A stretch of 57,202 nt of DNA from an uncultured Blastocatellia bacterium (GTDB taxonomy: Bacteria; Acidobacteriota; Blastocatellia; Pyrinomonadales; Pyrinomonadaceae). Numbering within the stretch: position 1 is the stretch's first letter; each line of letters begins with the position of its first letter. The translations under genes were made by a program, and so were the position numbers. Of the stretch, positions 26,734 to 32,108 are shown one piece after another. The notes under the pieces were generated by a model. That model was not told the DNA's origin. It saw only the letters and a list, made by a program, of their open reading frames with translations, and did no database searches. The stretch is from contig CAMLLD010000041.1 of assembly GCA_946480785.1 (NCBI GenBank), forward strand, positions 1-57,202, in the 5' to 3' direction.

Positions 26734-26786
26734 TTACGTTTCGCATTTCCCTCGCTGTAGTTTCCCCTTTTGTCCCCTGGTCAACG

Positions 26787-26815
26787 TTGAAACAGATCTC
26801 GGTTCCGTCTAAACG
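26787..26815 (+). promoter_or_regulatory. Possible promoter of the lanthipeptide operon
   Basis: TTGAAA (26787-26792), 17 bp, TAAACG (26810-26815). The -10 is imperfect, but it resembles the TAAACT of the malate dehydrogenase promoter in this window. Transcription would start about 55 bp before the first precursor. Confidence 0.35.
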
Positions 26816-26877
26816 GTCCGCAGGCCGTCGACTGTGCCGAGCACGGCAAATAACGTCAGTAAACAGAGGAGAAAGAA

Positions 26878-30090: not shown

Positions 30091-30122
30091 GAATTCATCA
30101 GCCTCGAGACAAAGTGAGAATC

Positions 30123-32108
30123 ATGCTACCGGCGTTTTTCAAAGCGGACCGCTCAGAGGGCGACAACACAACACCGCGCATTGGTTTCTTTCTGGCCATG
30201 CGTTATATCCCGATGTTCCTGCGGCTCGTCTGGGCCACGCATCGTGGTTACACGGTGGCAATGATCGTTTTGCGTATCGCGCGCGCGTTTACGCCGGTCG
30301 TGATGTTCTGGGTTGGCAAACTGATCATCGATGAAGTCATTGCCATACGTGCCGCGGGCCAAATCGGCTACACGCGCTTGTGGCAGTTCGTCGCGCTCGA
30401 ATTCTTCGTCGTACTCGCCGGTGAGATACTCACGCGCGCTTCGTCGCTCGTCGAGAGCCTCCTCGGCGATCTGTTCAATATACACATCAGCGAGCGGCTG
30501 ATGGACCATGCGGCGACGCTCGATCTCGAGCAGTTTGAAAACCCGACTTTCTACGACGTCCTAGAGCGCGCGCGCCGCCAGATCGCGAACCAGATCGGGC
30601 TTATCACGACCCTCGTCACGATGGGCCAGGACGCGCTCACGCTTATCTCGCTCGCGGGCGCTTTGCTCGTCTACAAACCATGGTTGCTGCTGCTGCTCGC
30701 GGTTGCCGTGTCGCCCAGTTTCTTCAGTGAGACTCGCTTCGCCGCGCTCGGCTATTCACTGTTGTATCGCTGGACGCCGCAGCGCCGCCAACTCGATTAC
30801 CTGCGCTATCTCGGCACGAGCAATCAGACCGCGAAAGAGCTGCACATGTTCGGTCTCGCGCGCTGGCTGATAGATCGTTACGTCAACCTTTCGAACCGCT
30901 TTTACAAAGAGAACAAACGCTTGGCGACGCGCAAGGGAATCGTCGCCGTGCTGCTCACGGGCGTCGGCTCTATCGGCTATTACGCAGCTTACATTCTCAT
31001 TCTCATGAGCGCGGCGACGGGCCGGATCTCGGTGGGCACGCTCACGTTTCTCGCCGCTTCTTTCATGCGCAGCCGTGATCTCATCAGCCGTCTCCTCAGC
31101 GGCGCGAGCCAGATCTACGAGCAGTGTTTGTATCTCAAAGACTTGTTTGACTTCTTCAAGATGCAGCCCGCGATCACGTCGCCCGCGAGCGCGCGGCCCG
31201 CGCCGCGTCCGATCCGTGAAGGCTTTGTTTTCGAGAACGTAGGCTTTCGCTATCCCGGAAGCGAGCGTTGGGCCATACGCAACGTGAGCTTTGTCCTGCG
31301 TCCCGGCGAGCGGCTGGCCCTCGTCGGTGAAAACGGCGCCGGAAAAACGACGCTCACCAAACTGCTCGCGCGTCTCTACGATCCGACCGAAGGACGCATA
31401 CTGCTCGATGGCCGCGATCTGCGTGAATACGATCTCGCGTCGCTGAGACAATCGATGGGCGTAATCTTTCAGGATTTCGTTTGCTACGACCTGCACCTCG
31501 ACGAGAACATCGGCGTCGGCCGGATCGATGAAGTCGAAACGTATTTGAATGAAGCGAACGACAACGACCCCGACTCCGGCGAGGCCCCCGAGGCAGAGAA
31601 GCGATTGATGCCGAGTGTGAACGGAAACGGAAACGGCGCGCATCACGCGTCGAACGGTCACGCGAAAATTGCGCCTTCCGTTCCGGCTTCGATTGTTAAC
31701 GCGGCGGAGAAATCAATGGCCGCAACGTTGCTGCCGCGTCTCCCAAAAGGATACCGGCAGATGCTCGGACGCAGGTTTGCCGGCGGCGTTAACTTGTCCG
31801 GCGGCGAATGGCAAAAGATCGCGTTGGCGCGTGCCTACATGCGCGACGCCCAGGTACTCATCCTCGACGAACCGACCGCCGCACTCGATGCGCGCGCCGA
31901 GTATGAAGCTTTCAAACGTTTCGCTGCCCTCGTGCGCGAGCGCATGGCCGTCCTGATCTCGCATCGCTTTTCAACCGTGCGCATGGCCGATCGCATCATC
32001 GTTCTTCGCGGCGGCGCAATTGTCGAAGACGGCACGCACGACGAGCTCCTCGCACATGCCGGCTTGTACGCCGAGCTGTTCAAGCTCCAGGCCGTAGGGT
32101 ATCGTTAA
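30123..32108 (+). CDS. ABC exporter (permease-ATPase fusion) of the lanthipeptide cluster
   Basis: 661 residues from the ATG at 30123; a GTG at 30114 is also possible. Six-helix membrane domain (about 20-320), then an ATPase with Walker A GENGAGKTT, Q-loop IFQDFVCYD, signature LSGGEWQKI, Walker B VLILDEPTAALD and H-loop LISHRFS. There is no N-terminal C39 peptidase domain, so the leader must be removed by another protease, as is usual in class III systems. Between Q-loop and signature, at about residues 477-520, is an insertion rich in Asn, Gly, His, Ala and acidic residues (NGNGNGAHHASNGHAK) not found in standard exporters. It lies 32 bp after LanKC and is presumably co-transcribed, exporting the modified peptides. 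Confidence 0.93.
   Translation: MLPAFFKADRSEGDNTTPRIGFFLAMRYIPMFLRLVWATHRGYTVAMIVLRIARAFTPVVMFWVGKLIIDEVIAIRAAGQIGYTRLWQFVALEFFVVLAGEILTRASSLVESLLGDLFNIHISERLMDHAATLDLEQFENPTFYDVLERARRQIANQIGLITTLVTMGQDALTLISLAGALLVYKPWLLLLLAVAVSPSFFSETRFAALGYSLLYRWTPQRRQLDYLRYLGTSNQTAKELHMFGLARWLIDRYVNLSNRFYKENKRLATRKGIVAVLLTGVGSIGYYAAYILILMSAATGRISVGTLTFLAASFMRSRDLISRLLSGASQIYEQCLYLKDLFDFFKMQPAITSPASARPAPRPIREGFVFENVGFRYPGSERWAIRNVSFVLRPGERLALVGENGAGKTTLTKLLARLYDPTEGRILLDGRDLREYDLASLRQSMGVIFQDFVCYDLHLDENIGVGRIDEVETYLNEANDNDPDSGEAPEAEKRLMPSVNGNGNGAHHASNGHAKIAPSVPASIVNAAEKSMAATLLPRLPKGYRQMLGRRFAGGVNLSGGEWQKIALARAYMRDAQVLILDEPTAALDARAEYEAFKRFAALVRERMAVLISHRFSTVRMADRIIVLRGGAIVEDGTHDELLAHAGLYAELFKLQAVGYR

What the first reader, a model, noticed from the sequence alone, without database searches (positions are those of the whole stretch)
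26780..32108. Compact class III lanthipeptide cluster in an acidobacterial genome
Two precursor genes, LanKC synthetase and ABC exporter follow each other in one direction with a probable promoter ahead. LanKC has the kinase residues (K268, D375, N380, D394) but both LanC zinc motifs are gone (YPYF for WCYG, FPG for CHG), which defines class III. Most described class III clusters are actinobacterial, so an acidobacterial one is likely undescribed. Product and activity are not predictable from the sequence.
Basis: partly seen in the sequence, partly recalled or inferred. Interest (0 to 1): 0.95.

Follow-up and report, generated by a model that had tools for sequence, protein, structure and literature searches.

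The report
Acidobacterial class III lanthipeptide gene cluster
A bacterium of the phylum Acidobacteriota carries a complete-looking set of genes for making and exporting two small ring-bearing peptides of a known type (class III lanthipeptides); the peptides belong to a strongly conserved family that my literature searches did not find described, but the kind of system is known.

Summary
The finding holds up and is mostly ordinary. Window 26878-32108(+) encodes two short paralogous precursors (52 and 54 aa, leader MERVLGLQ), a LanKC synthetase (905 aa) and an MsbA/P-glycoprotein-type ABC exporter. LanKC passes NCBI's class III cut-off (740 vs 575 bits) and fails the class IV one (541 vs 650). 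The kinase and phospho-lyase residues checked are present, the zinc ligands are gone, and a quick tree places it outside the zinc-bearing LanL clade. The claimed promoter is not supported. The host is Blastocatellia-like (best SdhA match 92%). A LanKC match was found in only 4 of 396 sampled genomes of the phylum. The precursor search gave 61 rows, the window's two included: all end in Trp and 59 carry two or more S-x2-[ST]-x2-C units. One twist: the zinc-less cyclase keeps the LanC Asp/His pair (D635/H695), both present in only 6 of 67 other LanKCs compared. NCBI already annotates acidobacterial LanKCs automatically. New member of a known kind; product and activity unknown.

The parts
26878..27036 (+). 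Precursor LanA1, 52 aa (leader with LGLQ at residues 5-8; core taken from G20: 11 Ser, 1 Thr, 4 Cys)
   Evidence: ORF; relatives and conservation; composition; below NCBIfam precursor cut-offs (15.4 of 22 and 13.5 of 30 bits)
27076..27240 (+). Precursor LanA2, 54 aa, tandem paralogue of LanA1 (126 of 156 aligned nt identical, stop not counted)
27296..27328 (+). 15-pair hairpin (one G-U pair, 3-nt loop) between LanA2 and lanKC; no T-run; possible mRNA stabiliser or attenuator
   Evidence: fold z -4.66 for the intergenic region and -5.86 for a 61-nt piece; inverted repeat; only place in the window
27373..30090 (+). lanKC, class III lanthionine synthetase, 905 aa
   Evidence: NF038151 740.2 bits, cut-off 575; NF038150 (class IV) 541.3, cut-off 650
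27511..28047 (+). Phospho-Ser/Thr lyase domain (RamC_N, residues 47-225)
   Evidence: PF25816 7.9e-55; ThurKC residues K65, H67, K94, K108, K117, D152, R163, R191 map to K71, H73, K100, K114, K123, D157, R169, R201; K114 is K in 185 of 204 rows, the other seven in 201 or 202 of 204, the rest being gaps
28117..28854 (+). Kinase domain (residues 249-494; K268, E287, D375, N380, D394)
   Evidence: PF00069 4.9e-21; conservation
29158..30006 (+). LanC-like cyclase domain (residues 596-878); K757, F801, S802 in place of the zinc ligands; D635 and H695 kept
   Evidence: PF05147 5.2e-27
30114..32108 (+). ABC exporter, 664 aa, TMD and NBD in one chain (GTG start; ATG alternative at 30123); low-complexity insert of about 40-50 residues in the NBD
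   Evidence: PF00005 1.5e-32, PF00664 only 0.089; MsbA and P-glycoprotein chains as best PDB matches, residues about 484-524 unmatched; Walker A from 405, LSGGE at 561, VLILDE at 581

Best explanation
This is a compact class III lanthipeptide operon. LanKC binds the MERVLGLQ leader of either precursor, its kinase phosphorylates core Ser/Thr, its OspF-like lyase eliminates phosphate to give Dha/Dhb, and its metal-free LanC-like domain adds Cys thiols to Dha, closing two or three small rings on conserved units (S22-x2-S25-x2-C28, S38-x2-S41-x2-C44, possibly C40 with the S29-S32 run), leaving several Dha and possibly a disulfide involving C21. The exporter sends the peptide out, and a protease encoded elsewhere trims the leader. 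Shown: gene content, domains, residues, conservation. Inferred: all chemistry, ring pattern, export, trimming. Whether the rings are labionin or lanthionine is open; the retained D635/H695 pair makes a sizeable lanthionine share plausible.
For: NCBIfam class III equivalog above cut-off, class IV below; Pfam order RamC_N-Pkinase-LANC_like; best solved relatives include the class III LanKC ThurKC, 8sao/8sap/8sam; lyase, kinase and zinc-site residues mapped onto ThurKC; tree outside the 14-row zinc LanL clade, support 100 for that clade. Precursor rows: of 57 tested (the window's two included), 55 have LxLQ in the first 30 residues, 56 have two or more S-x2-[ST]-x2-C units against a shuffle mean of 1.2 and maximum of 6, and 57 end in Trp. 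Core divergence of the paralogues mostly synonymous. Precursors-LanKC-ABC order also in G308, and a Walker-A gene directly after LanKC in both G369 clusters.
Against: The two neighbouring genes (ADOP permease, 1043-aa ORF) are no protease, immunity or regulator family that Pfam or NCBIfam names; no promoter match. Precursors score below NCBIfam precursor cut-offs. ThurKC's D771, needed for its labionin, corresponds to S802 here. In G180 a motif scan showed no exporter beside LanKC and in L001 the next gene is a second LanC-like protein, so the exporter link is not universal. No structure prediction could be run. No expression or mass data exist.
Confidence: 0.9

Rival explanations
1. A class IV (LanL) or class III/IV intermediate system, with a zinc-dependent cyclase.
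For: NF038150 (LanL) scores 541 bits; D635/H695 match the LanL pattern, 14 of 14 LanL rows; zinc-less rows L009, L010 and L086 branch beside LanL (support 98), so the classes are not cleanly split.
Against: Below the LanL cut-off of 650; no Cys/Cys/His at 757/801/802; outside the LanL clade.
Confidence: 0.03
2. A genuine LanKC whose cyclase mainly makes simple lanthionines (enolate quenched by H695/D635) and not labionins, leaving the middle Ser of each unit as Dha.
For: D635/H695 correspond to NisC D141/H212, proposed to protonate the enolate; both present in 94 of 123 window-like LanKC rows against 6 of 67 other zinc-less rows. S-x2-S-x3-C units give lanthionine in some class III peptides (PMC7268733, passages).
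Against: In ThurKC the D141 position (S608) is dispensable for labionin while D667, at the His212 position, is needed for it, so these residues do not cleanly decide the outcome. Some window-like rows carry Y (10) or F (7) with D in place of H, among them P0027 and P0078. The window-like set was chosen by similarity.
Confidence: 0.35
3. A decaying cluster with no working product.
For: Patchy distribution: a full-length LanKC match in 1 of 119 genomes of the order of G308.
Against: Checked catalytic residues intact, two open precursors with a conserved core, exporter motifs intact.
Confidence: 0.05

Closest known systems
ThurKC/ThurA (andalusicin) of Bacillus thuringiensis (PMC10604976; abstract, sections 6, 9, 11 and passages read)
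   Same: LanKC with lyase, kinase and zinc-less cyclase; several near-identical precursors; LxLQ-type leader; many dehydrations; no protease in the cluster
   Different: ThurKC has S608/D667 and S726/F770/D771 where this enzyme has D635/H695 and K757/F801/S802; the thur cluster has a methyltransferase; precursor sequences were not compared here
SapB-type ram clusters (RamC-RamS-RamAB) of Streptomyces (recalled, not tested here)
   Same: synthetase, precursor and ABC exporter together
   Different: host phylum; RamAB is two genes as recalled, here one; nothing here suggests a morphogen
Labyrinthopeptins (core recalled) and paenithopeptins (labionin in a disulfide-bridged ring, passage of PMC8960859)
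   Same: S-x2-S-xn-C units with surplus Cys that can form a disulfide
   Different: spacing x2 here, longer Ser run, C-terminal Trp, four Cys in the core
Class III precursor P0172 of a Pyrinomonadaceae MAG (present on L083; its LanKC is P0078)
   Same: leader MERVLxLQ, C-terminal Trp, S-x2-[ST]-x2-C units; LanKC 52-53% identical; ABC gene next
   Different: three tandem seven-residue units; passes the NCBIfam lanthi_III_a cut-off (28.7 vs 22 bits), which the window precursors do not

Membership tests
Class III lanthionine synthetase (LanKC) | Full-length match to the class III equivalog above its cut-off | tested here: met
   NF038151 740.2 vs 575 bits, residues 12-870
Class III lanthionine synthetase (LanKC) | Ser/Thr kinase domain with catalytic residues | tested here: met
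   PF00069; K268, E287, D375, N380, D394
Class III lanthionine synthetase (LanKC) | Phospholyase domain with the catalytic residues named for ThurKC | tested here: met
   PF25816; eight ThurKC residues have the same letter here
Class III lanthionine synthetase (LanKC) | LanC-like domain without zinc ligands | tested here: met
   K757, F801, S802 in place of Cys, Cys, His
Class III lanthionine synthetase (LanKC) | Dehydrates and cyclises its precursor without metal | not testable with these tools
   needs expression and mass spectrometry
Class III lanthipeptide precursor | LxLQ leader motif | tested here: met
   LGLQ at residues 5-8; 55 of 57 rows in the first 30 residues
Class III lanthipeptide precursor | S-x2-S-x(2-5)-C unit in the core | tested here: met
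   two units in each window precursor; the second holds a Cys (C40) inside it, which the stricter pattern of PMC11251773 (passage) would not allow
Class III lanthipeptide precursor | NCBIfam lanthi_III_a or lanthi_III_b above cut-off | tested here: not met
   LanA1 15.4 of 22 and 13.5 of 30 bits; LanA2 13.6 of 30 for III_b and no III_a row. The models cover described subfamilies
Labionin-containing peptide | Labionin residue in the product | not testable with these tools
   motif present, chemistry unknown
Class IV lanthionine synthetase (LanL) | Cys-Cys-His zinc triad | tested here: not met
Class IV lanthionine synthetase (LanL) | NF038150 above cut-off | tested here: not met
   541.3 vs 650 bits

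The most novel reading that the evidence does not exclude
An acidobacterial LanKC lineage with a metal-free cyclase that has kept the LanC Asp/His acid-base pair uses it to steer each S-x2-S-x2-C unit to lanthionine instead of labionin, or to a mixture, on a Ser-rich four-Cys core, giving polycyclic Dha-rich peptides of a type not yet isolated and a natural test of what decides labionin versus lanthionine.
Probability: 0.15. Interest if true: 0.55.

Novelty: new member of a known kind. Interest (0 to 1): 0.33.

Why it matters
The class III peptides named in the passages I read come from Actinobacteria and Firmicutes (PMC7268733; PMC8960859; PMC11251773; PMC10604976). A coherent acidobacterial family, known mostly from metagenome contigs, widens the sampled range. 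The retained Asp/His pair on a zinc-less cyclase offers a simple mutational test of how the labionin/lanthionine choice is made. If the product proves ordinary, the cluster is one more class III lanthipeptide operon.

Tried and rejected
Class IV assignment: rejected by the NCBIfam cut-off, zinc columns and tree. Promoter: none by sigma-70 consensus. Rfam: no family in the window at gathering scores. Canonical terminator after LanA2: the hairpin lacks a T-run and is not in the terminator list. A conserved exporter lineage: the window exporter resembles that of L093 (stretches of 116 and 175 residues at 48% and 30%) but barely that of G308 (44 residues at 27%), so exporters have been exchanged or have diverged. 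Plasmid copies: best listed 38.7% identity, Deinococcus (5 of 110 records listed). Extra precursors in the window: tblastn gave only chance-level hits beyond the two.

Limits and dropped rows. The shuffle test used 57 of the 61 proteins and left out P0179-P0182, the four weakest (E 0.011-0.17); all four end in Trp and three of them have two units. Below two units: P0175 and P0182; no LxLQ in the first 30 residues: P0146 (longer N-terminus, motif later) and P0175. The rows were gathered by similarity, so the shared motif shows conservation, not independent proof. The 123-row window-like set was also chosen by similarity, includes a Chloroflexota-named row, and counts one protein twice in two cases (L001/L081, L083/P0078). 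L042 gave no ORF row. The tree is a quick one on 102 of the 204 rows; several deep forks are weak (3, 3, 87, 94). The genome searches scored only the best few candidates per genome (two, seven), and the 396 genomes are a sample. Of 46 papers holding lanthipeptide and Acidobacteri*, 25 were listed and I read passages of five: PMC11354219, PMC9064862, PMC8692599, PMC11520301, PMC10027976; the library has open-licence papers only.

The host's rank is inferred through unnamed handles; no rRNA gene was found in the window.

Full report
What is there. The + strand of the window carries two short ORFs (26878-27036, 52 aa; 27076-27240, 54 aa), a 905-aa ORF (27373-30090) and a 664-aa ORF (30114-32108), all in one direction. 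The gaps are 39, 132 and 23 nt, and AGGAG-like ribosome sites precede both small ORFs and the large one. An ADOP-family permease (TIGR03434, 948 bits, cut-off 622) ends 144 nt upstream, and an ORF of 1043 aa with no Pfam or NCBIfam match at E up to 1 follows.

Synthetase. Pfam gives RamC_N, Pkinase and LANC_like in that order. NCBIfam gives the class III equivalog at 740.2 bits against a cut-off of 575, and class IV at 541.3 against 650. The twelve solved chains matched at 1e-30 include the class III LanKC ThurKC (8sao, 8sap, 8sam). I read the lyase and cyclase sections of the ThurKC paper (PMC10604976) and carried its residues over by the printed alignment. Lyase K65, H67, K94, K108, K117, D152, R163 and R191 become K71, H73, K100, K114, K123, D157, R169 and R201, the same letters. 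Across 204 rows seven of them are unvaried apart from two or three gaps; K114 is K in 185. The zinc positions S726, F770 and D771 become K757, F801 and S802.

Zinc register. In the 204-row alignment the 14 rows with a complete Cys/Cys-His triad put it exactly at columns 757, 801 and 802.

Tree. A quick maximum-likelihood tree of 102 of these rows puts the 14 zinc-bearing LanL proteins in one clade (support 100) and the window's LanKC elsewhere, in a 21-row clade (support 99) with metagenomic relatives, the Terriglobia locus L001 and the Pyrinomonadaceae protein P0078. Zinc-less LanKCs are not one clade: L009, L010 and L086 fall beside LanL (support 98). Several deep forks are weak (3, 3, 87, 94).

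An unexpected detail. ThurKC has S608 and D667 where zinc-dependent LanC enzymes have the acid-base pair Asp141/His212 (NisC numbers). The window's enzyme has the canonical D635 and H695 there. In the 123 window-like rows D occurs in 113, H in 101 and both in 94; in the 14 LanL rows both occur in 14; in the other 67 LanKC rows D occurs in 9, H in 25 and both in 6. On the 102-row tree the pair needs 13 changes, so it comes and goes. This lineage has lost the metal but mostly kept the pair proposed to protonate the enolate. That could favour lanthionine over labionin, but the ThurKC mutants do not settle it (S608A still makes labionin, D667A does not), and some rows of the set have Y or F for H.

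Precursors. One protein search found 20 rows (the window's two and 18 others), and an alignment search found 61 at E up to 1, the window's two included. In the 20-row alignment C21, S22, S25, C28, S29-S32, G36-D37-S38-G39-C40-S41-V42, C44, E49 and W52 are invariant. Of 57 of the 61, 56 have at least two S-x2-[ST]-x2-C units (500 core shuffles: mean 1.2, maximum 6), 55 have LxLQ within the first 30 residues and 57 end in Trp; 45 have four Cys in the stretch counted, 10 three and 2 five. Of all 61, 59 have two or more units and 61 end in Trp. Some distant members such as P0176 show three seven-residue units in tandem (by eye). Some members lack C21 (for example P0165), so a disulfide there would not be general. 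The window's two genes differ in the core at 11 synonymous and 4 non-synonymous codons, in the leader at 4 and 5. Neither reaches the NCBIfam class III precursor cut-offs, whereas the Pyrinomonadaceae precursor P0172 does (28.7 bits, cut-off 22). Several longest-contig lengths recur among family members (86091 for P0135, P0137 and LanKC P0002), suggesting that more than one precursor per cluster is common; that is an inference from equal lengths.

Cluster in relatives. G308 has three precursors, LanKC and an ABC gene overlapping it by 4 nt. In both G369 clusters a gene with Walker A follows LanKC directly, one of the two also with an ABC signature; in G180 the motif scan showed none. L001 has a second LanC-like protein and then a sigma-54 activator. 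Among 396 sampled genomes of the phylum 4 had a LanKC match at 1e-40. In the order of G308 4 of 119 had one, 1 of them full-length and 3 covering only the lyase-kinase part.

Host. No whole genome is held. The window's SdhA (39076-40875, my naming from the sequence) is 92% identical to G473 and G472 in the class of G308 (147 of 162 genomes matched). G308's LanKC is letter for letter P0078, named Pyrinomonadaceae by NCBI, a family of Blastocatellia. Full-length LanKC in 1 of 119 genomes of the order suggests patchiness.

RNA. Between LanA2 and lanKC lies a 15-pair hairpin at 27296-27328 (z -4.66 for the intergenic region, -5.86 for a 61-nt piece) without a T-run. In G308 hairpins follow precursors 1 and 2 directly (z -3.31 and -4.56); the stretch after precursor 3 is weaker (z -1.64, 10 of 200 shuffles as good). 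Protecting the precursor mRNA or damping read-through into lanKC is plausible, as recalled for other lanthipeptide operons; it is untested.

Literature. Six searches joining class III/LanKC words with acidobacterial names gave two papers (none; PMC10027976, on the class II roseocin family; PMC12502620, a Streptomyces description, listing only). In passages, PMC10027976 mentions acidobacterial lanthipeptide precursors in its survey, PMC11354219 reports class IV regions in Edaphobacter and PMC11520301 reports RiPP clusters in Pyrinomonadaceae MAGs without a class that I saw. So acidobacterial lanthipeptide clusters are in print, but I saw no acidobacterial class III one; most of the 46 papers I did not open. 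Walker 2020 (passages) says most LanKCs and LanLs come from Actinobacteria and Firmicutes and that class III peptides had been isolated only from Actinobacteria; PMC10604976 and PMC8960859 add Firmicutes.

Verdict. A real, complete-looking class III lanthipeptide operon in a Blastocatellia-like acidobacterium. The kind is known; the precursor subfamily and the retained Asp/His pair are the features worth a specialist's second look.

Noticed in passing
window 30114-32108, exporter residues about 484-524: The exporter's nucleotide-binding domain carries a low-complexity insert (N, G, H, S, A) before the signature motif, unmatched by the MsbA/P-glycoprotein chains.
   Followed up: partly
L083 from 1231 (G308): Downstream of the three precursors a short ORF begins MERVLNLQ but has only one Cys and no Ser-rich core (32 residues); perhaps a decayed or different precursor.
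   Followed up: partly
L083 602-700 and 854-953: Much alike hairpins follow the first and second precursor genes of G308, echoing the window hairpin.
   Followed up: partly
L001 9708-10994: A free-standing LanC-like protein (PF05147, 428 aa) sits directly after LanKC in a Terriglobia MAG.
   Followed up: no
G405, G424, G425 (L088-L090): Open frames of 480-525 aa match only the lyase and kinase part of LanKC (31-34% identity); by their length they have no cyclase and could be stand-alone dehydratases.
   Followed up: no
window 35471-36451 (-) and 46792-49212 (-): A radical SAM protein and a penicillin-amidase family protein lie at some distance; nothing ties them to the cluster.
   Followed up: partly
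window 32263-35394 (+): A 1043-aa ORF directly downstream, on the same strand, has no Pfam or NCBIfam match.
   Followed up: no
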